A DNA stretch of 64,000 nt from Lucinisca nassula (Eukaryota; Mollusca; Bivalvia; Lucinida; Lucinidae): NCBI GenBank assembly GCA_963580285.1, contig OY757011.1, positions 201,145,644-201,209,643 on the forward strand, read 5' to 3'. The position numbers and the translations under genes were made by a program. A model generated the notes under the pieces. That model did not search any database. It worked only from the letters and a program-made list of their open reading frames with translations, and was not told the DNA's origin. Shown in pieces: positions 19,839 through 62,726 of the stretch (position 1 is its first letter; each line of letters opens with the position of its first letter).

Positions 19839-22800
19839 ATGTTGAATGTTAATAAGGAACTTGAAATGGCACGCATTAAGAGTGAAAGGGACGCAAAAGA
19901 GATTAGTGAGGCCCATTTAGAACAAATAAAACATGGGTTTGAGCTACAGCACCAAGAATTAAGGAACCAATTAGAAATGCAGAGAGCGAAGCTCGAGCTA
20001 GAATTTGAAAAGCAAAAAGCTGAGAAGGTGGCTCATGCCCGGGATCCTAAGTTACCTTATTTTGAAGAGGGTAAAGATAAAATGGATAGTTATTTATCTA
20101 GGTTTGAGAAATATGCTACGGCTAATAAATGGGATAAGAGTGTTTGGGCCGCGTATTTAAGTGCATTGCTCAAAGGGCGCGCACTTGATGTATATGACCG
20201 GTTGTCAAATGAGGATGCGGCGGACTATGATAAGTTAAAGGACGCTTTATTGAAGAATTTTGACATGACAGAGCGCGGATTTAGGAAGCAGTTTCGTTAT
20301 AATAGGCCCGAGAAATCAGAAACGTTCATACAGTTCAGTAGTAGACTGAGAAGTTATTTAGAAAAAAGGCTTAATATGGCAAAGATAGAAAAATCTTTTC
20401 CGGCTGTCTGTGATTTCATGGCAAGGGATCAGTTCCTGGAGTCATGTAATAGAGAACTGTATGTATATCTGAAGCCAAAACAGTTTGGTAATTTAGATGA
20501 AATGGCTAGGGAGGCAGATTTGTTTGCAGAAGCGCGCGGGGGCGTATATAGTTGCATTAATAAGGGGCAACGCGATAATAGAGGCGCAGCGCAGGGTAAA
20601 CAGGACAAAGTTGACTCGAACAAACCGAGTGGTAGATCGGATATCAAGTGTAGCATATGCGGTAAGGGGCATTTAACAATTAAATGTTTTAAAAACCCCG
20701 ACAGGAAACAATTGTATAGCGCAGAGGTAGGAGCAACTGGAGTTGGGGATAGCGGTGTTAAGGAAAATTTTAACACGCGCGTAGAGACTCAAGGTTCTCA
20801 GGTTAAGAATGAGAATATGCAGAATGTAGGTCGTGGTTATACACGTGGTCGTGGTAATTTTAGAGGGTCTTTTCGCGGACGTGGTAAAAATAATAGCACA
20901 CCACGTGGCGCAGCACACCAAGTTAATTTTTGTCAAACGGAAGTAACTAGGAAAGGTGATGGGATTGGAAGTATTTTTGAAAATAAGGTTGGTGATCCTT
21001 TGATTTCGGATAGGGAGGAGTGTAGTAAGGAAACTAGGGAAGGTGTCTGTTACTTCTTAAAGGCAAGGTTACCGACGGCACAAGGATTGGTTAATAATAA
21101 AAAGGTGGTTGTATTAAGAGATACTGGGTGTACAGGCTGTGTCGTTCGGAGAAGTTTGTTTTCGGATAGTCAGTTAATAGGGAAGGAATCAAATGTTACG
21201 TTGATTGATGAATCCACACAAAGGTATCCTTTGGCAATGATTGACATTGATTGTCCTTTTTTCACTAGGAAAACGGAAGCTTTGTGTATGGATGATACGT
21301 TGTACGATTTGGTTATCGGTAACATTGATGGATCAAAACTTCCTGATATGTCTCATTTCTCAGCTGCGGCTGTAACTAGGTCTCAAACTAGGCAGGATGA
21401 GAAGCCTTACAGAAAACTTAAGGTTCCCGATCAGATCATTAACGATGACAAGGAAGCTTTCAAGCAAGCTCAGGTTGGTGATCCAACTTTGGAAAACATC
21501 AGGAAAAGGGTTGTATCTGGGAACAAGACTGTGAGTCGTGGTTTAAACCGAGGTGAAACTAGGTTTATTGAGAAAAAGGGTTTGGCATATAGGGAGTTCA
21601 CAAAGGGTAACAAAGTCTCTTTCCAACTTGTGGTCCCTCAAAGTTTCCGAGGAAAGGTGTTGAAACTGGCTCATGAAACGCTTATGCCTGGACATATGGG
21701 TATTAGGAAGACATTGGATAGAGTTGTAACTGAGTTTTACTGGCCCGGTATTTGCGGTGATGTCGCTAGATTTGGTAAATCTTGTGATATTTGTCAGAGA
21801 ACCAGTCAGAAAGGTCGGGTCACTAAAGTACCTCTAGTAAAAATGCCATTGATTGATACGCCATTTAAGAGGGTGGCAGTGGACATAGTTGGTCCAATTG
21901 AGCCTCGATCTGATAGGAAATCTCGGTATATTTTAACCATGGTAGATTATGCGACAAGGTATCCAGAGGCGATAGCTTTACCGAGTATTGAGACGGAACG
22001 TGTCGCGGAAGCGCTTATTGAAATGTTTAGTAGGGTTGGCATTCCTGATGAAATGTTGACTGATTGTGGATCACAGTTTACTGCTGAGGTAATGAAAGAA
22101 GTCAGCAGACTTCTTTCTCTTCAACAGTTAACGTGTAGTCCGAGACACCCAATTTGCAACGGCTTGCTTGAGCGTTTCCATGCTACGTTAAAGCAGATGT
22201 TACGTCGCATGTGTGCTGAACGTCCAAAAGATTGGGATAAATATCTTCCAGCTTTATTATTTGCGGTTAGGGAAGTCCCACAAGAGTCTTTAGGATACTC
22301 CCCTTTTGAGTTGTTATATGGACGTAACGTCAGAGGTCCAATGGCAATATTAAGAGAATTATGGGCTGAAGAAGTACGCGATGAGCAAGTTCTTTCGACG
22401 TATCAATACGTTATTGAGCTAAGGGAACGGTTAGAGCAGACATGCAAATTAGCGCGTGATAATTTAAAGAAGGTTCAGATTAAGCAGAAAGCTTATTATG
22501 ATAAAGGCACGAGGTCGCGTAAATTTGACTTCGGCGATAAAGTGCTGTTGTTACTACCGACAGACAGTAATAAATTATTGCTTCAATGGAAAGGTCCTTA
22601 TGGAGTGGTTGAGGTAGTAAACAGAATGGATTATAAGATTGACGTCAATGGAAATGTTAACACATATCACGCTAACATTCTGAAACAGTATGTTGAGCGT
22701 CAGACTGTGACGTCTCATTGTCTGATCTCTAAACCTATTATGTCGACAGACAGTCATGACAGAAATGACGTCGACGAGTCTTCATTTGAAGACAGCAGTT

Positions 22801-23084
22801 TTCAAACTGCAGAGCAACCGGAAAGTGATGGAGACGTTAGCGTCCCACACACACTAACGTCAGAGGAGAGTGAGGAGACAGAAGGGCTGAGAGAACAGCG
22901 CCTTGCAGGACTGACATGTCAGGCAGACCAAATTATATGTACCACATTTATGTCAGAACCTGTGAAATCAATCAAATCTGTTAAGCCAGAAAGGCCACCT
23001 CCAGTGAGATTAAAACGATATCCTTTTTCTAACAAACAGCAGAATGTCAGGGGAGCAGGAAAATTCTGGGGCAAACCGCCATAA
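19839..23084 (+). CDS. Gag-protease-integrase polyprotein without RT/RNase H
   Basis: 1,081 codons, uninterrupted. Domain order: coiled coil (residues 1-66); Gag core of the type related to SCAN domains (about 67-235, with LKGRALDVYDRLS at 111-123); a zinc knuckle CSICGKGHLTIKC at 271-283, spaced C-X2-C-X3-H-X4-C, one residue short of the norm; RG-rich tract (330-350); aspartic protease with DTG at 428-430. A linker with AAAVTRSQTRQ (509-519) follows. Integrase: HHCC finger H612, H619, C649, C652; catalytic D682, D742, E778 (a DD35E spacing); a GPY-type module WKGPY at 917-921. The acidic tail ends GKFWGKPP. Gag would package the RNA, protease cleave the polyprotein, and integrase insert the cDNA. 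No YxDD RT motif or RNase H occurs anywhere in the element. The intact catalytic residues suggest that the protein was functional recently. Confidence 0.93.
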   Translation: MLNVNKELEMARIKSERDAKEISEAHLEQIKHGFELQHQELRNQLEMQRAKLELEFEKQKAEKVAHARDPKLPYFEEGKDKMDSYLSRFEKYATANKWDKSVWAAYLSALLKGRALDVYDRLSNEDAADYDKLKDALLKNFDMTERGFRKQFRYNRPEKSETFIQFSSRLRSYLEKRLNMAKIEKSFPAVCDFMARDQFLESCNRELYVYLKPKQFGNLDEMAREADLFAEARGGVYSCINKGQRDNRGAAQGKQDKVDSNKPSGRSDIKCSICGKGHLTIKCFKNPDRKQLYSAEVGATGVGDSGVKENFNTRVETQGSQVKNENMQNVGRGYTRGRGNFRGSFRGRGKNNSTPRGAAHQVNFCQTEVTRKGDGIGSIFENKVGDPLISDREECSKETREGVCYFLKARLPTAQGLVNNKKVVVLRDTGCTGCVVRRSLFSDSQLIGKESNVTLIDESTQRYPLAMIDIDCPFFTRKTEALCMDDTLYDLVIGNIDGSKLPDMSHFSAAAVTRSQTRQDEKPYRKLKVPDQIINDDKEAFKQAQVGDPTLENIRKRVVSGNKTVSRGLNRGETRFIEKKGLAYREFTKGNKVSFQLVVPQSFRGKVLKLAHETLMPGHMGIRKTLDRVVTEFYWPGICGDVARFGKSCDICQRTSQKGRVTKVPLVKMPLIDTPFKRVAVDIVGPIEPRSDRKSRYILTMVDYATRYPEAIALPSIETERVAEALIEMFSRVGIPDEMLTDCGSQFTAEVMKEVSRLLSLQQLTCSPRHPICNGLLERFHATLKQMLRRMCAERPKDWDKYLPALLFAVREVPQESLGYSPFELLYGRNVRGPMAILRELWAEEVRDEQVLSTYQYVIELRERLEQTCKLARDNLKKVQIKQKAYYDKGTRSRKFDFGDKVLLLLPTDSNKLLLQWKGPYGVVEVVNRMDYKIDVNGNVNTYHANILKQYVERQTVTSHCLISKPIMSTDSHDRNDVDESSFEDSSFQTAEQPESDGDVSVPHTLTSEESEETEGLREQRLAGLTCQADQIICTTFMSEPVKSIKSVKPERPPPVRLKRYPFSNKQQNVRGAGKFWGKPP

Positions 23085-30138: not shown

Positions 30139-31980
30139 TTAAAAACTTCCGGATATGTTTTTTTCCGCTGTTTTGACCTGTTCGAGGTCATGGTTTTTAA
30201 TTAGGTCCTGGACTTTGATAATATAGGGAATCTTTCCTCTTAACCTATCTCTTTTAACATGATTGGGCGTGTCGGCGATCATTTCGTTTATGGGGAGACT
30301 TTCCCTAAGACTGCTTGAGCGGGCCCAGTACTTGAGCTGCAGTTCATCCCTCCGCAGGTGCAGGGGCATGACGCTGCATTCAATCTCCAGGTCCAGGTTC
30401 CGCGTTCCCCTGTATGCCCCAGTAGCGATTCTGAGGGCTGCGGCCTGTATGCTATCTAGTTTTTTCAGGTGTGATGGCGCCGCAGACGCGTATGCTTGGC
30501 AGCCATAATCAATTTTGCTTCTTATGAGTGCTGTGTACATTTTGATCAGGGTTTTCTTGTCTGCTCCAAAGTTTGCCCCCGAGACCGCCCTGAGCACATT
30601 TAGGTCCCGCTGGGACCTGGACACCAGATGTTCAATGTGCAGTCTCCATGTTAGATTGCTATCAAAGTACATGCCAAGGAATCTGGCATGACTGGCGTAC
30701 TTTATTTCCTGCCCGTCATACGCCAGCCTGGGCATGCCCTTTGTGTCTGCGAAATTTCTATTGAAAACCACCACTGTTGTTTTTTCTGTTGATAATTTGA
30801 AACCCCAGTTTGTAGCCCAATCACGTATGGCATGTAGCGCTTTTTGTAGTGCAGGAATGGCACTTTTTGGTTTTCTCGCGGTTTTCCATACTAAGCCGTC
30901 ATCTGCGAACATGGATATTCCCAGCGGTAATGCGTGAAGTGTTTCCTGCAGTGTGTTCATTAGTAGATTGAAGAGGATAGGAGATAGCACCGACCCCTGG
31001 GGGGAACCATTCTCGCAGTCATAAAAACCGGACACATCATTACCTATTTTTACGTTCATTTTTCTATCAGTCAAAAAGTCTCTGATCCAGGTTAACATTT
31101 TTCCATGAATTCCAAATTTGTTCAGTTTTAGAAGGACCCCCCTAGTCCACAGTAGGTCGAAAGCTTTTTCTAAATCCAAGAAAACCGCTACCAGTGAGTG
31201 TTTGATTAATTTTGCCTTTCGGATGGCGGATTCTAGTCTGGTGATTTGGTCAGTGGTAGATCTATGTTTCCTAAAACCTGATTGTTCGTCTGCTAAGAGT
31301 TTATTTTTCTCAATGTATGCTGTTAGTCTAGATGCTACCATGGTTTCCATGATTTTACATATGGTTGATGTGAGTGAAATCGGCCTATACGATTTCGGCT
31401 CATGGGGGTCCTTGTCCGGTTTTAATATTGGAACGATGGTGCTCTCCTTCCATTGTGTAGGGAGGGTTCCCTCGTTCCAAGATTTGTTTATTCATGCGAG
31501 CAGCTGATTTTTTCCCTTTTCGTGTAGATGTTTTAACATATCGTAGTGAACGGTGTCGGCCCCGGGGGCGGTGCTCTTTTTCTTATTTAGCGCGCTTTGC
31601 AGCTCCCTGTGGGAGAAGTTCGCATTGTATGCCCGGCACTGGCCAGCGCGATCGGCGTCCTGAACGGCCTGCTCAATCATTGGATCCTGCGTTTCCCTAA
31701 TGCGCCTAAAGTTTGGGTCTAAATTTTCATTGCTGCAGACTTTCCGGTAGTGTTGTGCTAAGATTGCTACTTTTTCTTCGTTTTCATGAAATCTGTTGTT
31801 TCCTTGTTTTAGAACCTCTACCGGCTTTAGGGTTTTTCCATTAAACCTTTTTATTGTGTCCCAAATTTTCTTAGCATTTGTTTTGTATGTGAGGGTGGAT
31901 ACAAAATCCCTCCAGGCTTGTTGTTTTGTTTGTGTTAAAATATATTTTGTTTCCTCTCTTACACGTCTATATTCCTCCAA
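30139..31980 (-). pseudogene. LINE-B reverse transcriptase
   Basis: Two frames cover the RT: 31,980-31,492 (EEYRRVREETKYIL ... HRELQSALNKKKSTAPGADT) and 31,350-30,139 (403 codons). Motifs include EQSGFRKHRSTTDQ, AVFLDLEKAFDLLW, SPQGSVLSPILFN, the catalytic MFADDG, and ARFLGMYFDSNLTW. Small indels near 31,483-31,494 separate the two frames, and the sequence between them still encodes an RT block in a shifted frame. The protein would copy its RNA at a nicked target, but this copy is dead. Confidence 0.92.
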
Positions 31981-33001
31981 AAGGGCGGCTGTTTTGTTTT
32001 TCCTATATTTATAATATATTTTGTTTTTCTTTTTGACTGCCTTGCTACAATTTTCATACCACCATGGTAAGGTGTTTTTTTTTGCTTATTTTTTGGTTGT
32101 GTTTTTGGTATTGATTTTTCACATGCCGCCATTATTTCCGAAACGAAATCCTCATTATTTTTATTGATATTTGTGCCTTCGAGGGATATGTTGATGTGTT
32201 TAAGTTTCTGCCTGAAGAGGTCCCAGTCTGCTTTGTCTAAATTCCAACGTCGGGCAGGCCGTTGCGTTACGCATTTGTGAGTGAAGTTGAGCGACGTCAG
32301 GATGGGGAAGTGGTCGCTTCCCATCGTGTCGTCTCCCACCTACCACTCACTAGATTGGCATAGTGATGCGCTAACCAGTGTTAAGTCTATGGCGCTCGTG
32401 CTACCGCGCTCGACGTTGAGTCGTGTGCCACACCCCGTGTTAAGGATTACGTAATCAGTGCTGTTTATAAAATCGACCAGTTCTAGGCCTCGTCGTTTTT
32501 CATATGTGGGGTTGTGGTTTGTCTCCCATAGTTCGTGTCTGGCATTGAAATCCCCTAGAAAAATTGATTTTTTCCCTAATTTTTTGTAAATTTCATCATA
32601 ATCGTCAGACGTTACTACTGCTTTAGGTGGTGCATAGAAGTTTACTATGTCTATGTTTTCTTTTTGTCCAAAAATTCTGACGATCACCACCTCTATTTCT
32701 TTTTTTGTGTGTCTAAATTTGATTTCTTTCGAATCTAATCCTGTTTTGATAAAGGTGGCTAGCCCTCCCCCGCGCTCCCCCTTTTCCCTACTGAAACTGA
32801 CCGGAGTTTTGTATCCTGGAATTTTTGTTGGTTTACTATCTTTTTTGAGAAAGTTTCTTGGATAGCTATTACCTCCGGTGTGTAGCCTAAAGTTTCTAGA
32901 TAATTCCCTAAAGCCCCGAGTTTTGTTCCATTTTCCCTGCCAGACAGAATACGGGCGTTCCACTGCAACACACGGATTTTCGCAATGGTGCTGGGGTTCA
33001 T
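31959..33001 (-). pseudogene. LINE-B AP-type endonuclease
   Basis: The minus strand starts MNPSTIAKIRVLQWNARIL (catalytic Asn), with EVIAIQET (catalytic Glu). A frameshift in an A-tract near 32,846 leads into SREKGERGGGLATFIKTG, IDIVNFYAPP, IFLGDFNARHELW (Asp/Asn) and SAIDLTLVS. An in-frame TAG at 32,340 precedes MGSDHFPI (the SDH motif). A further A-tract shift lies near 32,080. The three lesions make the copy non-functional. The start lies 71 bases after the end of the ORF1 remnant. Confidence 0.9.
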
Positions 33002-33071
33002 AATAAGGCAGTTTTACGTCCACCCTTGATCCTTCGTCCAGGATCAGTGGAGCTGTAATCCGCGTTTTTCC

Positions 33072-35295: not shown

Positions 35296-35616
35296 CAAGT
35301 AGCCCATCGGGGCTTGAAGAAATAAATGGGCTGCATGATGCCTCCACGCAGAGCTGAATCTGGTCGCACACGAGTACCGGTAAACCGGTTAGAGGGTCTA
35401 AGCCTGCCCAGGCAAAGTGGTGCAAGTTGAACCGTCCTTGCTTATAAACCATATTGGTTTCATTCGGCGACAGGGCTTGAGATGTCATTTCATCTCAATG
35501 TCGGGTAAAAATCCCACAAAATTGGAAGCAACCTCTAAAATGACCTATATAGTGTTGACCGGGACGTTAAACCCCAAATCAAACAAACAAACAAATCAAA
35601 TCAATCAAACAAACAA
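35296..35616 (+). mobile_element. SINE-3, best copy, (CAAA)n tail
   Basis: Runs from AGCCCATCGGGGCTTGAAGA through GAGATGTCATTTCATCTC to GTTGACCGGGACGTTAAACC, with a CAAACAAACAAA tail. It sets the orientation of the family. A self-complementary GATGTCATTTCATC segment is conserved in all copies. Confidence 0.85.
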
Positions 35617-36553: not shown

Positions 36554-37345
36554 ATAAGAGTTTCAATTTACGTTAACCCCACCCACTAGTGAAGTAATGG
36601 CGGGAAAGAGTGTCAACACAGCTTTTAATCTACGGTGAGAAAGAATAAATAATCCACAGTGAGCAGCAATAAAATGTTGCTGGTTTTATGCTTGTCTGCT
36701 ATGAGCCAGACAAGAAACTAATGGCAAATATAAGAAAAAAAACAAAAAACTTCTGATACCCGAGATCCGCCCACTGCGAAAAAACAACAATAATACTAAA
36801 TACACCTTAATGATCCTAAGTATTGTGACAGATACGGCAATCTTCCACGTATGGACAGGTCCAGTTACTATATATTAGGCGTCATTGTTATATTATTCGG
36901 TGTAAGTTTTACATCAATTTCCGGCGTACTACAACAAACAGTGAAGATCTCGATCAGATGCAACAGAACCTCTTCACCGATTTTTGGGACGCTACAACGT
37001 TAAGCAACGTCGTATCAGCGTCTATGCAACGTCATATGGACGTGTTTTCAAACCCAAGCGTATTTTAACTTTGCAAAAACGAGATTAGAGTGAAATAAAG
37101 AATAATTCATGGCGGAAAAGTTGTGATGCACCAATATTAAATAACAAAGTGTAAGTTTCTCCTTGGATTTTGAACTGAGATCGACGGAATCGTGATTTTA
37201 GCGCCCGTAGTTTTGACATTTTCTAACGGTTTGTTTTGATGCTGATAAACAGACTGGACAAAAGGTACTTTTATTATTTCTATGACCATATATTGACAAA
37301 ATATAAGTGTTTTACAAAGAAAGTTACAATTTCACTCGGTATATA
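36554..37345 (+). other. probable LINE-C 5' untranslated region and flank
   Basis: No coding sequence. The LINE-C 5' boundary cannot be fixed from one copy. The stretch just before the start codon is AT-rich (TCGGTATATAATGG). Confidence 0.45.
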
Positions 37346-39235
37346 ATGGCACCAGGTCGGCAGAAAAATTTCTACGCTGTAACAAATGGAAGAGAAATAG
37401 GGGTCTACACAAACTGGACTCACGCTGGAGATTCTGTAATAGGATTTGCCAAAGCCAAGTACAAGGGGTATTGTACTTTTAGTGAAGCAGCAACTGCGAT
37501 GTCTAATGCAGGGTTTGCAGATTTTTTGGTCTTTGATGGACAGAACACGTATAAAAGAGCAGACTATGAACAAAGCAAGCAAATACACATTTGCGGATCA
37601 GATGCAAAAGCCACTGACCAGCTACAAACGTCAGAGGATTGCCTCAAACACACACAGACTCCCTCAGATGCACAAACAAATATCCCTACTGTCTTCATTG
37701 ATGGCAGTTGCATTCGCAATGGTGCAGCGTCTGCACAGGCAGGCATAGGAATTTTCTGGGGTCCTGATCATCCTTGGAACTGCGGTCAGTCACTACATGA
37801 GGAGGAACTAACAAATAATAAAGCGGAGATGAGAGCCGCCATTAAAGCAATCGAAGAAGCAAAAAAACATGATGTCGGAAAACTTATCATCAAGTCTGAT
37901 AGCAACTATGTCGTACACGGAATAACAGAATGGGTCCATAAATGGCAGGCAAACCAGTGGAAGACCTCCGATGGTGAAAATGTGAAAAACAAAGAAATAT
38001 GGATCAAGCTTCTTAACTTAATACAAAGTAGTAAAATCCACATCACTTGGGAACATGTTCCTGCACATTCAGGAATATATGGTAATGAGGAGGCAGATCG
38101 ATTGGCAGTGAACGCAGCGAAATCATTAATGCAAAGCGACACGGCCTTAGAATGCAAACCTAGAATTACACCACCCTGTAAATCAGAAAAGCAAAATATG
38201 CCAAATCCTGAACCTAGAGTTCTTATTATTCCCAGGAAAACTTGTACAGCAGATGATGCAGGCTTATCAAAACAACCACTGGCATCATCACAGTCCACAC
38301 CGAGCAGGAGAATAACCAGAGATAGGAGCGAGACACCTGTACCTGGGTCAATCAATGGTTTTTCGAGCAAGAGTGATGGTTTCGAAGACAGCAAAAGCGG
38401 AAGACTACAGATTAATTCCAAGCGTATGGAAAAGCCAATAGATGATGAGCAAACCGTCAGATGCATAAAGAATGTCGAAATCGTGTTGCAGAGCGTAATG
38501 GCCGAGATACATGAACTGAGACAGCATCAAATGGACTTTAAAACTGAGATGAAAGAACAGCTAGATCAGCTACAAGTGAAGCAACAACAAACAGAAAGTT
38601 CATTCCATAATCTATATGTGAAGCAGCAAGAAACAGAACAATCAGTATCTACGCTCTCGAAAGATGTGGCAGTAGAAATAGATAAATGTAACCAAAAAAT
38701 TGACGACTTAAATGAATTGCCCAGACGGACAGATTTACCAAGTCAACTCTGCGATTTTCGTTTGGAAATAAAAGGGCTGAGCAAAAAAGTTGACACGCAC
38801 TTTGGTGATATGAATATATCAGTACAAGCGGTTGAAAGGTCAATTATGTCACTACAGAATGGTTTTGACAATAGTTCAGAGGAGTGCAAGACCAATGATA
38901 AACAGATACAGGAAACTCTGACTGAAATAAAGACGGACATGAGAAGAGTAAAACAAACTATTACGGATATTGAAACAACGCTGACTGTTATATCAGAGGG
39001 TGAAGTTTTCTCAAAACCGAATAAATCCACAAAAGCCAAGACAAATGATGAAGAAATAATTATACTACCTGATACAAACATTTATAAAGAATTAGAAGTC
39101 GAGGACGGTGAATCGGAAGTAACTTTTAAGAATGTGGATGGCGGTGTGACTAGGGAAATCAGCGACGTAGACAAAACATTAGAAGTAGATGAAGGTGAGA
39201 GAAATGGTTCAGTCGAGAGACCTACAAATACCTAA
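37346..39235 (+). CDS. LINE-C ORF1, part 1: RNase H1 (hybrid-binding + catalytic) with coiled coil
   Basis: The open frame begins at 37,307, but Met14 (37,346, MAPGRQKNFYAV) is the better start because the conserved domain follows directly. Numbering from the upstream Met: hybrid-binding domain about 21-66 (FYAVTNGREIGVYTNW), as in eukaryotic RNase H1. RNase H catalytic domain about 127-275, with D132 (FIDGSC), E174 (NNKAEMRA), D198 (IKSDSN), H254 and D264 (VPAHSGIYGNEEADRLA): a complete catalytic set. A Ser/Pro-rich linker (280-380) and coiled coil (about 385-560) follow. RNase H1 cuts RNA in RNA-DNA hybrids, so here it could remove template RNA. In known RNase H-bearing LINEs the domain follows RT in ORF2, and it lacks the hybrid-binding part. 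The frame ends TAA 39,233-39,235, but the same frame continues into the SGNH domain. Confidence 0.93.
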   Translation: MAPGRQKNFYAVTNGREIGVYTNWTHAGDSVIGFAKAKYKGYCTFSEAATAMSNAGFADFLVFDGQNTYKRADYEQSKQIHICGSDAKATDQLQTSEDCLKHTQTPSDAQTNIPTVFIDGSCIRNGAASAQAGIGIFWGPDHPWNCGQSLHEEELTNNKAEMRAAIKAIEEAKKHDVGKLIIKSDSNYVVHGITEWVHKWQANQWKTSDGENVKNKEIWIKLLNLIQSSKIHITWEHVPAHSGIYGNEEADRLAVNAAKSLMQSDTALECKPRITPPCKSEKQNMPNPEPRVLIIPRKTCTADDAGLSKQPLASSQSTPSRRITRDRSETPVPGSINGFSSKSDGFEDSKSGRLQINSKRMEKPIDDEQTVRCIKNVEIVLQSVMAEIHELRQHQMDFKTEMKEQLDQLQVKQQQTESSFHNLYVKQQETEQSVSTLSKDVAVEIDKCNQKIDDLNELPRRTDLPSQLCDFRLEIKGLSKKVDTHFGDMNISVQAVERSIMSLQNGFDNSSEECKTNDKQIQETLTEIKTDMRRVKQTITDIETTLTVISEGEVFSKPNKSTKAKTNDEEIIILPDTNIYKELEVEDGESEVTFKNVDGGVTREISDVDKTLEVDEGERNGSVERPTNT

Positions 39236-40351
39236 CATGAAAATACGGCACCACAGGCTTTAAATCGATCTGAGACAATTGCAAGGCGATCAACACAACC
39301 TGCAAAAAGAAATGTAATGAATGAGCAAAGAACAGTACAATCAAAAAGGGAGAAAATATACTTGATAGGAGATTCTATATCGGGACAGGTTAACCCTGCT
39401 TTACTGGGAAAGGCTACGAAATCGTATGTTCAGAAGCTAAAAGCGCCTAAGATTGATGACTTACAGAAACTGACAGACCATGTAAAGGACGCTAAGATGA
39501 TTATAATACATACAGGTATTAACAATCTACGACAGAAAGAGGCAGTGGCTGATCCCACGGAGACGCTAATTAACGCTGTGGTGAGTTTTAAAGACGAAGC
39601 GCCTGGTAGTAAGATAGTTATATCCAAAGCCATTCCCATTGGTAATCATCAAATAGATATCGATAGAATTATCTACAACGCAGAAAGTGAGAAGAAGTTA
39701 CGGGAAGTTCTAGAAGAAGAAGTCACATTCTTAGATCATGGGAATCTAGCGGAACGAGGGATGCCAATACAGAAATACTACAGACAAGACCTGATACATC
39801 TGTCAAATCATGGTGTTGCAGTATTTGCCCAGAATTTAGAACAAGGAATATCAAATTTGTTATGGAAAGATGGGAAACGAGACATCGCTGATCAACGAGA
39901 TACCCAGACGAGCTTGTATCAGGATGGAGAAAGAAGTCGAGGAAGGGATGACCAGGATGACAGGGAGAGGGTGTCAGCCAGGCCCTATAGATCATCGTAT
40001 TCGCATGACAACAACAGAAATAAGTATTACAGACAAGGAAGTTACCGAGGAAGGAATGCACAGGGCAACTGGGATCGGGATGACGGATACAATCGCAGAC
40101 ATATGTTAGGACACTCCGAAGATAATAAATACCGCTACAGAGACAGTTTTCATGATAATGACAAAAACAGATTCGATAACAGAAGATATAACAGAAGGAG
40201 GGACAATCGGTATAGCGATTATTCAAGACGCAAGGATAGCTACTATTATGAGGACTCTTATGACGATGGCACAGGATGCTCTATTAAAGATAAACATTTT
40301 GAGAAAGACAATGATGATTATTATTTACATCAAAGTAATAGACGGTGGTAA
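39236..40351 (+). CDS. LINE-C ORF1, part 2: SGNH hydrolase domain with Arg/Asp/Tyr-rich tail
   Basis: Same frame as part 1, open right after the TAA; the first internal Met is at 39,317. From that Met: block I GDSI (18-21, nucleophile S20), block III HTGINN (65-70, with N69), block V DLIHLS with D158 and H161. The domain (about 13-180) fits SGNH/GDSL esterases, a class known in ORF1 of some CR1/L2-type LINEs. The tail (190-344) is rich in Arg, Asp, Tyr and Gly (RRKDSYYYEDSYDD) and may bind RNA. A single TAA separates it from the RNase H1/coiled-coil part. I infer an original fusion protein of about 1,000 residues, or two proteins made by re-initiation or readthrough. Confidence 0.88.
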   Translation, partial: HENTAPQALNRSETIARRSTQPAKRNVMNEQRTVQSKREKIYLIGDSISGQVNPALLGKATKSYVQKLKAPKIDDLQKLTDHVKDAKMIIIHTGINNLRQKEAVADPTETLINAVVSFKDEAPGSKIVISKAIPIGNHQIDIDRIIYNAESEKKLREVLEEEVTFLDHGNLAERGMPIQKYYRQDLIHLSNHGVAVFAQNLEQGISNLLWKDGKRDIADQRDTQTSLYQDGERSRGRDDQDDRERVSARPYRSSYSHDNNRNKYYRQGSYRGRNAQGNWDRDDGYNRRHMLGHSEDNKYRYRDSFHDNDKNRFDNRRYNRRRDNRYSDYSRRKDSYYYEDSYDDGTGCSIKDKHFEKDNDDYYLHQSNRRW

Positions 40352-40636
40352 TATGTACCATTTATTGTGTAATTGGGACACTAGTGAATAGTGGTTTATG
40401 AAAACATGTTGATTTAACAAATAAGAGAAGCTTAAAAGTTAACAGAATTTAAATTCTGCTACATTTATAAATTTATAAGTATGGGCTTACAAACATAACT
40501 TTTTATGCTTCCTATAAATTTCAGTCAATGGTATCATATGACATTAATTTATCAGTTAAGATGAATAGTATCATTTTGCTATATTAATTTTCTCTTTTCA
40601 CTCTAATCTTAATTTGTAAAGTTGTAACATGCTATA

Positions 40637-43069
40637 ATGATGTTGACTAAAAGTGCAAAAAAGTTTTTGACAATAAGCTGTTGGAATATAAATGGTTTGG
40701 AGTTTAAGGCTAACGGAGTCAAAAGTAACAAGTTAAACGACCAGGAGGTTATCAGTAAACTTGATAAATCCGATTTCATAGGTTTAGTGGAGACGCATGC
40801 GGACCAAACAACTGATATATCTTTACAAGGTTATTATGTATTTCGGAAAGATCGACCAAAACATCAGAAAGCCTGGAAATCATCAGGTGGAATAGCTGTC
40901 ATGGTAAAGGAATCATATAGAAATGCATGCAAGTTTGATCCTTTATCAGACAGTGACATCATCTGGGTTCGAGTACAGAAACAACTCACAAATTTAAATT
41001 CTGATTTGTATTTAGGTTTTGTGTATTTACCCCCATCAAATTCTTCTTATGGGAAAACACACGGGAAGGATATACTACAAAAAATTGAGAAACATGTTGA
41101 GTTTTTCTCTTGTAAAGGTAAAGTCATGTTATGTGGAGACTTTAATGCTCGGGTAGGAGAAAGTATTGATTTTTTAGACAAAGAAGAAGACCCCCATTTA
41201 CCTCTGTCCCATGATGAAACATTTGAATTTATTCTACCCAGAGTCTCTCATGATAGCAAAACCATTAATCAGCATGGTAAATGGCTTGTTGATATTTGTA
41301 CTGATAACCAAATGTATTTATTAAATGGCCGTACTTTAGGTGATTTGACTGGCAAGTTTACTTGTCACACATTTAGGGGGAGTAGTGTTATAGATTATTT
41401 CATCTCTAGTACATCTCTTTCTAATTCAGTTTTTAGCATGAATGTACATGATTTAAGTCTTTTTTCTGACCACTGCTTAATATCGATGCAGTTAATAGTT
41501 TCTTGCGATATTGATGAGGATTTTTCTAAAAATGAGATTGCTATCAATAACACATATTTGCCAGATAGATTTATTTGGTCTGAAGACGCTAAACAGCGAT
41601 ATCAAGAATCTTTCAAATCAGCTGATGTTAAATATAAATTGCATGATATAGATAAAATGCTTGAGCAAATTGAAACAAACAGTGCTGGCATTGAGTCTAT
41701 AATTGAAAAGGTTACTGATGTTCTGGTGTTTGCAGGAAATAAATCGTTAGTTAGAAAATCGTTCAAACCTAAAAGAAAGTCATTTCATAAAGCCAGTAAG
41801 AAATGGTATGATTTGGATTGCAGAACTATGCTGAAATACTTAAAGTCGGCCAAAAATGCTTTTAATAGAAATACTTGTAGTAATGTATTACGTATGCAAT
41901 ATTACAGGAAATATAAAGAATATAAAAAATTAATAAAACATAGAAGAAGGCGGTACAGACATTCCTTAACAGTTACATTAAACCAGGTCATGGATGATGA
42001 TCCAAAGACATCTTGGAAAATCATAAATGAGCTGAAAAATGAGACTTTACCCCCTGATAAGGCAGAAAAAATAAGTCGGACTCAATGGTACTCTCATTTT
42101 AAAGATTTGTTGAAAGATAACACCTGTAAAATTGATGAAGCAAGGCAGAGAGTTGTTAAAGATGAACTTCGATATTATGAAAACTCTACACAATCAGGGA
42201 ACTTAGATTTTATAATAACTGAGAAAGAAATTGCAGATGCATGTAAGAAACTAAAAAACAATAAATCCAGCGCCTACGATCTGATAAAAAATGAAATGAT
42301 CAAATCAGCTCTCCCTTTTATTAGTTCAAGACTTGTTACAGTATTCAATATTCTACTAAAAACTGGTATATTTCCAATATCTTGGACTGAAGGTATCATT
42401 GTACCCGTTCACAAGCAAGGCTGTGATACTGAACCTAATAACTATCGAGGCATTACGTTAAACAGTTGCTTTGGTAAATTATTTTGTCATATACTTAATG
42501 AAAGAATTTCTAAACACCTGGAGGAGAGAGCATATATTAAAAGGGAGCAAGCCGGATTTCGTAAAAACTTTCGCACTGCAGACCAAGTATTCATTCTAAA
42601 AACAATTGTTGATAAGTACATCAAGACAAACAGTAAACAAAATAAATTATTCAGTTGTTTCATTGATTTGAAAAAGGCATTCGATACGGTTTGGCATGCT
42701 GGTTTATTGTTAAAATTACAAAAAGCTGGGATAAATGGTAAAATTTATGAATTAATTCGCTCTATGTATCAATATTCAAATTCACGGGTGAAATGTAAAC
42801 ATACCTTGACGGAACCTATTAGTATTAAACAGGGTATTCATCAAGGTAATGTTCTTAGTCCACTTTTATTCAATATATTTATCAATGACGTTGGTACTGA
42901 AATGAGCGAAAGAGATGCCCCCATTTTGCACGATTCAAAGGTAAATTATTTGTTATATGCAGATGACTTAGTTTTACTCTCAACCTCACAAGAGGAACTA
43001 CAAGGGAATTTAGTAAAACTCTATGAATATTGTAATAAGTGGGGCCTTAAGATAAACACGGACAAATAA
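40637..43069 (+). CDS. LINE-C ORF2, part 1: AP-type endonuclease and reverse transcriptase
   Basis: 810 codons. Endonuclease (about 11-295): SCWNINGLE (N18), VETH (E52), SSGGIAVMVKE, CGDFNAR (D168, N170), SVIDYFISS, and SDHCLIS. A middle region with DLDCRTMLKYLKSAKNAF follows. RT blocks: AEKISRTQWYSHFKDLL, KNNKSSAYDLIKNEM, NNYRGITLNSCFGKLF, REQAGFRKNFRTADQ, CFIDLKKAFDTVWH, HQGNVLSPLLFNIFIND, and YADD at 774-777. The frame stops at TAA 43,067-43,069, seven bases before part 2 opens in the same frame. Start chosen: MMLTKS, 285 bases after ORF1. The protein would nick target DNA and reverse-transcribe from the nick. Confidence 0.93.
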   Translation: MMLTKSAKKFLTISCWNINGLEFKANGVKSNKLNDQEVISKLDKSDFIGLVETHADQTTDISLQGYYVFRKDRPKHQKAWKSSGGIAVMVKESYRNACKFDPLSDSDIIWVRVQKQLTNLNSDLYLGFVYLPPSNSSYGKTHGKDILQKIEKHVEFFSCKGKVMLCGDFNARVGESIDFLDKEEDPHLPLSHDETFEFILPRVSHDSKTINQHGKWLVDICTDNQMYLLNGRTLGDLTGKFTCHTFRGSSVIDYFISSTSLSNSVFSMNVHDLSLFSDHCLISMQLIVSCDIDEDFSKNEIAINNTYLPDRFIWSEDAKQRYQESFKSADVKYKLHDIDKMLEQIETNSAGIESIIEKVTDVLVFAGNKSLVRKSFKPKRKSFHKASKKWYDLDCRTMLKYLKSAKNAFNRNTCSNVLRMQYYRKYKEYKKLIKHRRRRYRHSLTVTLNQVMDDDPKTSWKIINELKNETLPPDKAEKISRTQWYSHFKDLLKDNTCKIDEARQRVVKDELRYYENSTQSGNLDFIITEKEIADACKKLKNNKSSAYDLIKNEMIKSALPFISSRLVTVFNILLKTGIFPISWTEGIIVPVHKQGCDTEPNNYRGITLNSCFGKLFCHILNERISKHLEERAYIKREQAGFRKNFRTADQVFILKTIVDKYIKTNSKQNKLFSCFIDLKKAFDTVWHAGLLLKLQKAGINGKIYELIRSMYQYSNSRVKCKHTLTEPISIKQGIHQGNVLSPLLFNIFINDVGTEMSERDAPILHDSKVNYLLYADDLVLLSTSQEELQGNLVKLYEYCNKWGLKINTDK

Positions 43070-43075
43070 AAAATA

Positions 43076-44200
43076 ATGACATTTTCTAAAGGTGGTCGAA
43101 TGTTAAAAGATAACTTTAAATTCTTTGTGGGTGAAGACGAGCTTGAACATGTTAAACAATATAAATATCTTGGAGTCAATATAAGCAATACGGCTAAATT
43201 TTCTGTAGCAGAGAAAACACTTGGTTTAAAAGCGAGCAGAGCACTGTTCTCAATCAAACAGAGTATATTTGATAAAAACATTAAACCTTCATCTTTGTTA
43301 AGCATATTTGAGGCTCTTGTCAAACCCATTGCCTTATATGGAAGTGAAATATGGGCTGCTTACAAACCATCTTATAAAAACAAAACATTGGATGAGATGT
43401 TTGAACAGTCACTAAAAAGTAACATTGAATTTGATAAAGTATTCATTAAGTTTTGTAAATATGTGCTAGGAGTTCAATCCAAGGCTTGCAATTTTGCTGT
43501 CTTCAGCGAACTTGGCCAGTACCCCTTATTGATAGCTATTTTAACAAGTCGTATTAACTTTTGGCTGCACACTATTCAGTCAAACAGTGATTCGTTAATA
43601 TTTAAGGCATACTCGGAGCAATTTAGCAGCTCTAACGATAAAGGTATATGGGTACAGTTTATAAAAAAGATTATGCATGAATTGGGATTTTCCCATGTGT
43701 GGAATAATCACTCCACTTTTGACACTGATGCTCTTCTTGCTGCAGTCAAGCACAAGCTGAAAGAAAGATTTATGTCATTTTGGAAGAATCGCATTTCAGG
43801 GGATGAGGGGATGAAAAAATTGCAGACTTACAAATTACTGAAACAAAGTTTTGGATTTGAGCCTTATCTTGATTATCTACATGATAAAAGTATCAGAAAA
43901 TGTCTGACTTCATTTAGGATAAGTGCCCATAGACTGAGAATAGAACGGGGTAGATACTGTGGGGAAACACCGGAGCAAAGATTATGTATGAGTTGTAATG
44001 TCATTGAAGACGAAGTTCATTTTTTATGTCACTGTAAAAAGTATGAGACGGCAAGATTACAGCTGTTTGAAACTATACAAACAAAAGACTTTAGATCGAG
44101 TAGGGATCATGAAGAAACCTTTTTAGGCTTGATGAAAAATTCAGATATGAGTGTTATTAAAGCTGTGGCAAAATTTATTCAGGATTGTCAAATAATATGA
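43076..44200 (+). CDS. LINE-C ORF2, part 2: RT C-terminal domain with Cys/His motif
   Basis: 374 codons in the same frame as part 1 after one in-frame TAA. VKQYKYLGVNIS is the block that follows the YADD region in LINE RTs. FEALVKPIALYGSEIW follows, and near the end SFRISAHRLRIERGRYCG and CMSCNVIEDEVHFLCHC, a C-X2-C-Xn-H-X3-C-like motif usual at LINE C-termini. Without part 1 it would be inactive. Confidence 0.9.
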   Translation: MTFSKGGRMLKDNFKFFVGEDELEHVKQYKYLGVNISNTAKFSVAEKTLGLKASRALFSIKQSIFDKNIKPSSLLSIFEALVKPIALYGSEIWAAYKPSYKNKTLDEMFEQSLKSNIEFDKVFIKFCKYVLGVQSKACNFAVFSELGQYPLLIAILTSRINFWLHTIQSNSDSLIFKAYSEQFSSSNDKGIWVQFIKKIMHELGFSHVWNNHSTFDTDALLAAVKHKLKERFMSFWKNRISGDEGMKKLQTYKLLKQSFGFEPYLDYLHDKSIRKCLTSFRISAHRLRIERGRYCGETPEQRLCMSCNVIEDEVHFLCHCKKYETARLQLFETIQTKDFRSSRDHEETFLGLMKNSDMSVIKAVAKFIQDCQII

Positions 44201-44411
44201 GTTTTAAATTCCAAACCATTCGTTTCTAACCATATTTGTAATATATATATAATTCATTAATGTCTATGTCTGTGGATTTGTGTGTCTGTATGTGTGTTTG
44301 TATGTATATGTCTGTTTCATGATCTTTTTTGTTGTGTGTGTCATTTGCCTTTAACCCATATTGTGGGTATAATTGAGCAATAAAATAAATTCTATTCTAT
44401 TCTATTCTATA
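44201..44411 (+). other. LINE-C 3' UTR and (ATTCT)n tail
   Basis: A TG-rich tract (TGTGTGTC... TATGTGTGTTTG) is followed by AATAAAATAAATT and then TCTATTCTATTCTATTCTAT, a short pentamer tail typical of several LINE groups that do not end in poly(A). The element ends near 44,411. Confidence 0.8.
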
Positions 44412-44744: not shown

Positions 44745-44951
44745 TAGCCGTATTCCAGAAACTCCTAAAGGGGTACCTTGGCAAACAGTGCAGGCCCAGA
44801 TCAGACGCCGCAGAACGCGGCGTCTGATCAGGGCCTGCACTGTTTGCAAAAAGTTATGCCATTTCCCGAATAAATTTTGAAGAAAACACAACCTGACACC
44901 CCTAAATTTCGAAATGGACTCCTGTCATATATAAGGAGGAAAAAGGGTTAA
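44745..44951. mobile_element. HP2 hairpin MITE, inverted copy
   Basis: A near-perfect stem: GCAAACAGTGCAGGCCCAGA... against GGGCCTGCACTGTTTGC, core CAGACGCCGCAGAACGCGGCGTCTG. AAGGGTTAA at the right end matches the family terminus. Confidence 0.85.
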
Positions 44952-46388: not shown

Positions 46389-46669
46389 CATCACGAAAAC
46401 ACGCCTATATAAATTTGACACTCTCGAACCCTACTTTAATATAGTAAAAAATGGGGTTTACAGGGGTAAACCTTATTTTTCTTATTTCTGCTCTAAATAT
46501 AGATTATGGGTACTCGTTAGAACCGCCTCAATGAGGCGGTTCTAACGAGTACCCACAATCTACATTTTAAGCAGATATAAGAAAAATATTACATTTTTTT
46601 ATCTTAAAATTTATATATTTTTCGGCGATAAAGGTTACAATGTATTTGTATAGGTGTGTTCCTGTAATG
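46389..46669. mobile_element. HP1 hairpin MITE, near-complete type II
   Basis: Terminal inverted pair CATCACGAAAACACGCCTATA and TATAGGTGTGTTCCTGTAATG. The core is a perfect palindrome: GGGTACTCGTTAGAACCGCC, TCAATGA, then GGCGGTTCTAACGAGTACCC (about 46,507-46,554). Confidence 0.9.
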
Positions 46670-61547: not shown

Positions 61548-62726
61548 ATGAGTAGTCAAACTGGTGCTGCGTGGAATGTGGTGGTGGGGAGGTCACGCCC
61601 TAGATTTAGAGGCAGGGGCGGACACAATAATAGTCGTCAGAAGACGGAGAGTAAGCCTGCGAGTAAACGACAGAGGGTTTCGGACGGATCCACGGGTTCG
61701 GCAACAGGAGCAGGGTCAGGGGCAAGTAGAACTTTGTCATCTCAAACATTGTTTTCCATTGATAAATTCAAAGAGCTAAATATAGATGATAAACTTGAGC
61801 GCATCTTCGCTTGTGTACAGGACGTGTTATTGACCAATGAAAGACTTTTGAAGGCGGAGCGAACGGTGAATGAGTTATGTAACACTACACTAGTCAATAA
61901 AGACCGTATTAATATGCTGGCATATAAATCCATTGATAGTGAAGCACGCCAGAGGCGTAATAATCTCATATTTTGGGGAATCCCCGAAAGTCTTAATGAG
62001 GACTGCCTTGTTGCCCAGAATGAATTCCTGTCTACCCATTTGAACCTTGACCCTGACAACATATTTGTCCAGCGAGTACACCGGATTGGAAAGTTAAAGC
62101 CCTACCCGCGTCGTAGCGACGGACCTGCGAGGCCGAGACACAGACCACTAATAGCAGCTTTCCGGGACTATCCAGATGTAGAGCTTATTCTGTCGAACGC
62201 CGGTAGACTACAGGGATCTCCGTTTGGTATCAACCGTGACTATCCGCAAGAAATTGTGAATGCTAGAAAGCCCCTCTTTAAGCAAAAAAAGGAGCTGAAA
62301 TCCAAATACCCAGAAGCTAACTTGTCAATCCAGTTCCCCGCTAAACTGTTGAAAGATGGACGAGTCGTTAAAGACATGTTCCCGGACTGGCACGCAGTAC
62401 TTAAACTTGATAGACTTAGTCAGTGCAATTATAACGCGGAAAAGCCGGAGGTGGTGGTATTTGACAGCGAGGCATCAAATGAATCTGATATGGAACATGA
62501 ATCTGATAAATCGCCCGGACCTCGGGCATCGAGACAACCAACGCCGACCGGTGCTAGATCGGTATCTCTAACGTCAGTGCACCTACGTGGACTTTCGATG
62601 GACCGCGGAGAGCCGGGCACGGACCCAGTTGATCGAGTTGCGCAGACAACAGCGGACCGCGGGAGTACAGAGAACTCACCCGAGAGAGACCAGCCCCGGA
62701 ACGAGCCCGACAACACGAATGTATAG
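61548..62726 (+). CDS. LINE-D ORF1: L1-like RNA-binding protein
   Basis: 392 codons. A basic Arg/Gly/Ser-rich N-terminus (1-65) and a coiled-coil-like helix (about 70-125, DKLERIFACVQDVLLTNERL) are followed by an RRM-like region starting RRNNLIFWGIPE (about 136-147). A C-terminal domain carries FVQRVHRIGK and RPLIAAFRDY. This is the arrangement of L1-type ORF1 proteins, which coat the element RNA as trimers and act as nucleic-acid chaperones. The tail (300-392) is acidic, Ser/Pro/Arg-rich and probably disordered. The frame is intact with a clear ATG after an AG-rich leader. ORF2 begins about 120 bases downstream. Confidence 0.88.
   Translation: MSSQTGAAWNVVVGRSRPRFRGRGGHNNSRQKTESKPASKRQRVSDGSTGSATGAGSGASRTLSSQTLFSIDKFKELNIDDKLERIFACVQDVLLTNERLLKAERTVNELCNTTLVNKDRINMLAYKSIDSEARQRRNNLIFWGIPESLNEDCLVAQNEFLSTHLNLDPDNIFVQRVHRIGKLKPYPRRSDGPARPRHRPLIAAFRDYPDVELILSNAGRLQGSPFGINRDYPQEIVNARKPLFKQKKELKSKYPEANLSIQFPAKLLKDGRVVKDMFPDWHAVLKLDRLSQCNYNAEKPEVVVFDSEASNESDMEHESDKSPGPRASRQPTPTGARSVSLTSVHLRGLSMDRGEPGTDPVDRVAQTTADRGSTENSPERDQPRNEPDNTNV

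What the first reader, a model, noticed from the sequence alone, without database searches (positions are those of the whole stretch)
37307..40351. LINE whose ORF1 fuses a complete RNase H1 (hybrid-binding + catalytic), a coiled coil and an SGNH hydrolase
Seen: one plus-strand frame carries FYAVTNGREIGVYTNW (hybrid-binding domain), a full RNase H set (D132, E174, D198, H254, D264), about 170 residues of coiled coil and then GDSI/HTGINN/DLIHLS of an SGNH hydrolase. An endonuclease-RT ORF follows 285 bases later. Known: RNase H in LINEs usually follows RT in ORF2 and lacks the hybrid-binding domain; SGNH domains occur in ORF1 of some CR1/L2-type LINEs. Inference: the element captured a host-type RNase H1 gene into ORF1, giving it its own means to remove template RNA and perhaps to hold RNA-DNA hybrids during target-primed synthesis. 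I do not know of this exact combination, so it may be a new ORF1 class.
Basis: partly seen in the sequence, partly recalled or inferred. Interest (0 to 1): 0.88.

Follow-up and report, generated by a model that had tools for sequence, protein, structure and literature searches.

The report
LINE carrying RNase H1 in ORF1
A jumping gene in an animal genome carries, in its first protein, what looks like the cell's RNA-removing enzyme RNase H1 joined to a fat-cutting enzyme fold, and several related families in the same genome keep this unusual combination in working-looking order.

Summary
The domains are real and in the stated order, but the window's ORF1 is cut by one in-frame TAA (39233-39235) that two sibling copies lack. 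The unit is a 7.38-kb LINE (37034-44410) with two further full-length copies, 99.1% and 98.6% identical, on other chromosomes. A second family (~8.9 kb, four copies 99.5-99.8% identical) has hybrid-binding + RNase H + helical + SGNH regions in one frame of about 1350 codons in 3 of 4 copies, and an open EN-RT ORF2 in 4 of 4. The unnamed 2.93-Gb genome holds at least 89 RNase H1-type loci besides the probable host gene, 22 in open frames of 900 codons or more; LINE context was seen at 10 of 14 fetched loci. Catalytic residues of both enzymes are invariant in the rows compared, and nonsynonymous change is depleted. So this is a conserved LINE ORF1 class, not an accidental neighbour. A sister LINE has hybrid-binding domain + PHD-like finger + SGNH without RNase H. 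A 2013 study found no RepBase esterase ORF1p with a structured RNA-binding domain. Function (removing template RNA) is inferred, untested. Nine paper searches listed no description of this ORF1; Repbase was not searched.

The parts
37034..44410 (+). whole LINE copy (7.38 kb). At the 5' end two sibling copies share about 16 more bases that differ in the window
   Evidence: same ends in L101 and L102
37346..39235 (+). ORF1, first part: hybrid-binding domain, RNase H, helical region; ends at in-frame TAA 39233-39235
37370..37492 (+). RNase H1 N-terminal hybrid-binding domain (PF01693)
   Evidence: E 1.1e-11
37688..38119 (+). RNase H catalytic domain (PF00075); D, E, D, H, D codons start at 37700, 37826, 37898, 38066, 38096
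   Evidence: E 1.1e-36
38441..39025 (+). long helical, probably coiled-coil region (limits approximate)
   Evidence: helices 363-445 and 448-566 in the low-confidence model of relative P0017; alignment
39236..40351 (+). same frame after the stop: linker, SGNH domain, Arg/Tyr/Asp-rich tail
39341..39868 (+). SGNH hydrolase domain; Ser codon 39374, Gly 39515, Asn 39521, Asp 39788, His 39797
39869..40348 (+). low-complexity Arg/Tyr/Asp/Asn-rich tail (in family 2 a long Asn-Gln-Glu-Gly-Arg repeat)
40637..44200 (+). ORF2: endonuclease, RT, C-terminal Cys/His motif (motif read by eye); in-frame TAA at 43067-43069 shared by the three copies of this family that were aligned
40682..41482 (+). APE-type endonuclease (PF03372, PF14529)
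42410..43066 (+). reverse transcriptase (PF00078), up to the stop
44354..44368 (+). small 3' hairpin (ACCCA...TGGGT), similar in other families
44389..44410 (+). (ATTCT)n tail after AATAAA, the 3' end

Best explanation
This is a damaged copy of a LINE (non-LTR retrotransposon) whose lineage acquired an animal-type RNase H1, hybrid-binding domain and catalytic domain together, at the front of an esterase-type ORF1. Shown: the domain order, the mobility of the unit, its presence in several families, and constraint on both enzymes. Inferred mechanism: ORF1 protein multimerises through its helical region and coats the element RNA; the hybrid-binding domain holds RNA-DNA hybrid (or structured RNA); after target-primed reverse transcription the RNase H removes the template RNA so that the second DNA strand can be made, freeing the element from host RNase H2; the SGNH domain binds or cuts lipids as in other esterase ORF1 proteins.
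For: Element ends and two near-identical siblings. Family 2: single-frame ORF1 in 3 of 4 copies and open ORF2 in 4 of 4, with different flanks. 20 of 36 homologues of ORF1 match both RNase H and SGNH in one protein, three of them only part of SGNH; 15 of the 36 match hybrid-binding domain, RNase H, helical region and SGNH. RNase H and SGNH catalytic residues identical in the rows compared. pN/pS 0.18-0.37 for hybrid-binding domain, RNase H and SGNH in the window-against-others comparisons, against 0.48-0.76 for linkers, helical region and tail; one further comparison (L108-L104, SGNH, limits set roughly) gave 0.49; synonymous sites mostly saturated. Best sequence and structure match human RNase H1. 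27 of the 30 best hybrid-binding loci have RNase H just downstream, 25 in the same frame; many are copies of a few families. PMC6068448, passages: LINEs without RNase H rely on cellular RNase H2, and RNase H1 overexpression complements.
Against: No activity was tested. Host species and LINE clade are unknown. A hybrid-binding domain occurs without RNase H in a sister LINE, and 28 of 67 hybrid-binding matches have no scored RNase H within 1.5 kb, so the two domains need not work together. No clear target-site duplication. Weak branch support for the RNase H origin. Helical region from a low-confidence model (mean pLDDT 53.7). Family-2 copy L112 lacks two residues in a stretch of its RNase H that is conserved among the relatives. 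ORF2 of the window's family carries a stop in 3 of 3 copies.
Confidence: 0.65

Rival explanations
1. The RNase H1 part is kept mainly as the RNA-binding module that esterase ORF1 proteins otherwise lack: the hybrid-binding domain grips structured element RNA for packaging, and cleavage is secondary.
For: A sister LINE keeps a hybrid-binding domain with a PHD-like finger and SGNH but no RNase H found. PMC3905857 (sections 12 and 13 read) reports no structured RNA-binding domain in RepBase esterase ORF1 proteins.
Against: RNase H catalytic residues are identical in all rows that reach them and the domain is about as constrained as the hybrid-binding domain. Some RNase H loci have no hybrid-binding match in the scored lists.
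Confidence: 0.2
2. RNase H and hybrid-binding domain act at the target: they recognise or clear R-loops in chromatin and so steer or open the insertion site.
For: Only analogy with the substrate of RNase H1; the sister LINE pairs a hybrid-binding domain with a PHD-like finger, a possible chromatin reader (PHD below Pfam cut-off).
Against: Insertion-site preference was not tested; I saw no shared motif by eye in the flanks of the 7 copies printed.
Confidence: 0.1
3. A LINE landed beside a host RNase H1 or esterase gene, or the window is an assembly chimera.
For: The window alone would allow it.
Against: Same boundaries in copies on three chromosomes, several families in the same order, exon-like host pieces elsewhere, and single proteins with the same domains in other sequence sets.
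Confidence: 0.01

Closest known systems
Esterase (type IV) ORF1 LINEs, e.g. ZfL2-1 (CR1, L2, RTEX)
   Same: coiled coil followed by SGNH domain in ORF1, EN-RT in ORF2 (PMC3905857 passages and sections 12-13; PMC4120745 passages)
   Different: [quoted passage not shown] here hybrid-binding domain and RNase H precede the helical region
LINEs with RNase H (I clade, plant Ta11 L1, oomycete L1, Utopia)
   Same: element-encoded RNase H
   Different: there the RNase H lies in ORF2, at its C end in plant and oomycete L1 (PMC5348765 passages); that it lacks the hybrid-binding domain is recalled; here it is in ORF1
Cellular RNase H1 of animals
   Same: hybrid-binding domain, linker, catalytic domain with the active-site residues
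   Different: window copy 50% identical to a crinoid RNase H1-like protein in the catalytic domain; fused to helical region and SGNH; dispersed in long open frames

Membership tests
non-LTR retrotransposon (LINE) | ORF with APE-type endonuclease then RT | tested here: met
   open in 4 of 4 family-2 copies
non-LTR retrotransposon (LINE) | dispersed copies with common ends and a 3' tail of simple repeats | tested here: met
non-LTR retrotransposon (LINE) | target-site duplications | tested here: inconclusive
   none clear in 7 copies; a 6-base match in L109 overlaps the tail
esterase (type IV) ORF1 | SGNH fold with Ser, Gly, Asn, Asp/His in ORF1 | tested here: met
   Pfam GDSL family listed for 3 of 7 proteins scanned (of which 5 were ORF1 proteins), each below its cut-off; no such match for the window
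esterase (type IV) ORF1 | coiled coil before the SGNH domain | tested here: inconclusive
   long helices in a low-confidence model; no coiled-coil program was run
RNase H1 (animal type) | hybrid-binding domain plus RNase H with D-E-D-H-D | tested here: met
RNase H1 (animal type) | groups with animal RNase H1 in a tree | tested here: inconclusive
   not rejected, p-AU 0.725, weak branch support, only 4 animal rows from 3 species
named LINE clade (CR1, L2, RTEX and others) | position in an RT tree with reference elements | not testable with these tools
   no reference LINE RTs were at hand; for the tree of my own hits

The most novel reading that the evidence does not exclude
A LINE lineage that is self-sufficient for template removal and membrane contact: because it supplies its own hybrid-gripping RNase H1 and a lipid-type esterase on an abundant coat protein, it could complete double-stranded DNA outside the usual nuclear target-primed route (for example on membranes), a step towards a virus-like life cycle.
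Probability: 0.08. Interest if true: 0.95.

Novelty: new variant of a known kind. Interest (0 to 1): 0.77.

Why it matters
Why some LINEs have acquired their own RNase H is called enigmatic in print (PMC5348765, passages). Here the enzyme sits on ORF1, away from the RT and probably in larger amounts, together with the hybrid-binding domain, and in an esterase ORF1 of a kind reported to lack structured RNA-binding domains (PMC3905857). Family 2, with near-identical copies and open frames, makes direct tests possible: does a catalytic-dead RNase H stop transposition, and does the element escape dependence on host RNase H2?

Tried and rejected
Chance or chimera: rejected by copies with common ends. 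Bacterial origin: a scan of prokaryote contigs with the ORF1 alignment confirmed 152 loci and kept the best 80; all 80 titles are bacterial, identities are 24-37%, and the matches lie in the hybrid-binding/RNase H half; the scan used RNase H words only. Viral contigs: four scans; three found no relative, one gave 12 loci matching in the RNase H half. Pfam alone for the SGNH part: below cut-off. In the SGNH structure search ranks 1, 2, 4 and 9 are designed scaffolds; the other top-10 rows are natural SGNH enzymes. Contig-length coincidence as evidence of linkage in other genomes: P0017/P0053 (6065) and P0005/P0054 (2250694) share lengths; suggestive only, the contigs were not seen. An Rfam scan of the window found nothing at gathering scores. 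Identity as a mark of the host gene: two exon-like pieces on C5 are 75% and 68% identical to the crinoid protein, but the third is 41% and a LINE fragment (C15) is also 68% over the same 35 residues, so identity does not decide; order and spacing of the pieces do the work.

Rows dropped before counts: in the RNase H tree 1 of 65 rows (P0147) gave no match, and rows labelled LINE include protein hits whose genomic context was not seen; in the RT tree 12 of 122 rows were too short or had no RT match; one of 98 rows (a hybrid-binding domain) was left out before merging.
Full report
Observation. The frame at 37346-39232 holds the RNase H1 N-terminal hybrid-binding domain and an RNase H domain, followed by a helical region; after a TAA at 39233-39235 the same frame continues to 40351 with an SGNH domain and a charged, tyrosine-rich tail. 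ORF2 starts 285 bases later with endonuclease and RT, has one TAA at 43067-43069 and ends at 44200.

The unit. The genome (2.93 Gb, 696 contigs, unnamed) gave 15 matches to the first kilobase of ORF1, a lower bound. I fetched 10 kb around the 14 places other than the window. L101 (99.1%) and L102 (98.6%) match the window from 37034 to 44408-44410 and stop there on both sides, so the element is about 7.38 kb and moves as one piece. L102 carries a ~300-base insert with a 13-base overlap of the flanking matches. L103 is a broken copy, about 89% identical. Of the 14 loci, 10 match ORF2 downstream of ORF1; L103 keeps only the start of ORF2 and the 3' end; L105 and L113 show no DNA match to ORF2 (L113 has a frame with the ORF2-type C-terminal motif); L110 has an insert and is cut by the end of the fetched stretch. 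The ORF1 stop is private to the window copy among the three; the ORF2 stop is shared by all three, so it probably predates their spread.

A young family. L108, L109, L111 and L112 are 99.5-99.8% identical over ~8.9 kb, lie on four chromosomes with different flanks, and end in (TTCTA)n (one short tail in L108) after a small hairpin and AATAAA. ORF1 is one open frame of 1354, 1360 and 1358 codons (stop to stop) in L108, L109 and L112 and split in L111; ORF2 is open over 1194 codons in 4 of 4. L110 is a fifth copy with a large insert. L112 lacks two residues in its RNase H. Their tail is a long Asn-Gln-Glu-Gly-Arg repeat. L104 of another family has a 1009-codon single-frame ORF1. Near identity and open frames suggest recent activity; expression was not tested.

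Spread. A search with the hybrid-binding family gave 67 matches; of the best 30, cut out as 3-kb loci, 27 have LINE-type RNase H downstream, 25 in the same frame, and 3 do not. A search with a crinoid RNase H1-like protein gave 98 rows, only 150 of 1758 candidates being scored. Leaving out one row that is a hybrid-binding domain, these merge to 92 loci; 3 belong to the probable host gene on C5, leaving 89, of which 22 lie in open frames of at least 900 codons. Some of the 89 are short or weak, and most were not read. By coordinates, 39 of 67 hybrid-binding matches have a scored RNase H within 1.5 kb downstream on the same strand and 28 do not; of the 28, two are on C5 beside the probable host gene, three are the PHD family below, and 23 were not read.

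Host gene. On the minus strand of C5, hybrid-binding pieces at 152066600 and 152002487 are followed by RNase H pieces at 152055894, and at 151986004 and 151977116, in the order of a protein split over exons, perhaps two gene copies. Identities to the crinoid protein are 68%, 75% and 41%; identity does not separate them from LINE fragments (a C15 LINE fragment gives 68%). I could not fetch them. The crinoid protein itself has Gln at the catalytic Glu position, so it is an imperfect stand-in.

Relatives elsewhere. Of 36 protein hits to ORF1, 15 match hybrid-binding domain, RNase H, helical region and SGNH (two of these only part of SGNH), 5 RNase H and SGNH without a hybrid-binding match (one with only part of SGNH), 12 RNase H without SGNH (mostly shorter predictions), 1 only helical region to tail, and 3 are other RNase H proteins (a spider RNase H1-type protein and two unrelated). 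Two of the three named sources are Candidatus Thiodiazotropha bins, clam symbionts (recalled), so probably carried-over host DNA (inference). The species of the other hits are not given.

Selection. In the comparisons with the window, pN/pS is 0.18-0.28 for the hybrid-binding domain, 0.27-0.30 for RNase H, 0.32-0.37 for SGNH, 0.19-0.24 for EN and RT, and 0.48-0.76 for linkers, helical region and tail. L108 against L104 gives 0.22, 0.27 and, with roughly set limits, 0.49 for SGNH. Most dS values are saturated, so the ratios are rough.

Structure. Full-length model of relative P0017: mean pLDDT 53.7; RNase H blocks 41-88, 80-88 over residues 171-250; top matches human RNase H1 (E 5.8e-14, 44% identity). 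The hybrid-binding domain was not resolved (pLDDT under 50 for residues 1-55). SGNH model: mean 59.5, blocks 72-93 over residues 41-210; natural matches include sialate O-acetylesterase, PAF acetylhydrolase and E. coli thioesterase I.

Origin. Tree of 64 RNase H domains: the 40 LINE-type rows are one side of a branch (SH-aLRT 38), the 4 animal RNase H1 rows one side of another (89); LINE + animal together is not rejected. A single capture from an animal RNase H1 is the simplest reading, not proven.

A sister design. L119, L120 and L121 have a hybrid-binding domain 42% identical to the window's and no LINE-type RNase H within 1.5 kb. L119 reads hybrid-binding domain, PHD-like finger (E 0.0015, below cut-off), coiled-coil-like stretch and the start of an SGNH-like domain, with one stop before its rest. 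L120 with L149 shows the same, frame-broken after the hybrid-binding domain, then EN and RT fragments. In the RT tree L120 falls outside a 23-row clade (SH-aLRT 99) that holds five RTs of this genome with RNase H in ORF1 (window, L104, L106, L108, L114) and P0054, whose link to an ORF1 rests on contig length alone; the ORF1 of the other rows is unknown. ORF1 modules thus seem to be exchanged, as PMC4120745 describes for other domains (passages).

Literature. Nine searches listed no paper on RNase H1 or its hybrid-binding domain in a LINE ORF1; several lists were capped (20 of 366, 20 of 44, 15 of 22,480, 15 of 137, 15 of 213, 10 of 368). I saw passages of PMC4120745, PMC10294476, PMC11203168, PMC6068448 and PMC5348765 and, of PMC3905857, passages and sections 12 and 13. 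Repbase itself was not searched, so I cannot say that the ORF1 is undescribed.

Mechanism. Shown: architecture, mobility, constraint. Inferred: multimerisation, hybrid binding, RNA removal after reverse transcription, lipid contact.

Noticed in passing
L119, L120+L149, L121 (C10, C16, C20 of G000): A sister LINE whose ORF1 has hybrid-binding domain + PHD-like finger + coiled-coil-like stretch + SGNH-like domain but no RNase H found; 23 further hybrid-binding matches without a nearby scored RNase H were not read.
   Followed up: partly
window 43067-43069: In-frame TAA in ORF2 shared by the three aligned copies of the window's family, so probably carried along while they spread: mobilised by other copies, or read through.
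   Followed up: partly
window 19839-23084 (+): One 1081-codon frame with integrase domains but no RT or RNase H found by Pfam; its gag-like start and protease-like DTG motif are read by eye.
   Followed up: no
window 30139-33023 (-): A second LINE: endonuclease and RT in separate frames.
   Followed up: no
window 61548-62726 (+): 392-codon frame that looks like another LINE ORF1 (impression only; no Pfam match at E 0.001).
   Followed up: no
window 35302-35606: A ~290-base dispersed repeat, also in L101, L102 (inside the LINE copy), L104 and L110.
   Followed up: no
window 44778-44850 and 46474-46588: Near-perfect palindromes, arms 94% and 91% complementary.
   Followed up: no
family-2 5' ends (L108, L109, L112): The three elements begin with the same sequence, ACATGACGTCACGATGTAAACAA; TGACGTCA is a CREB/ATF-type site (recalled), perhaps part of an internal promoter. 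L101 and L102 share a similar start.
   Followed up: no
P0030 (spider Oedothorax gibbosus): A 763-residue protein with two RNase H1-type units in tandem.
   Followed up: no
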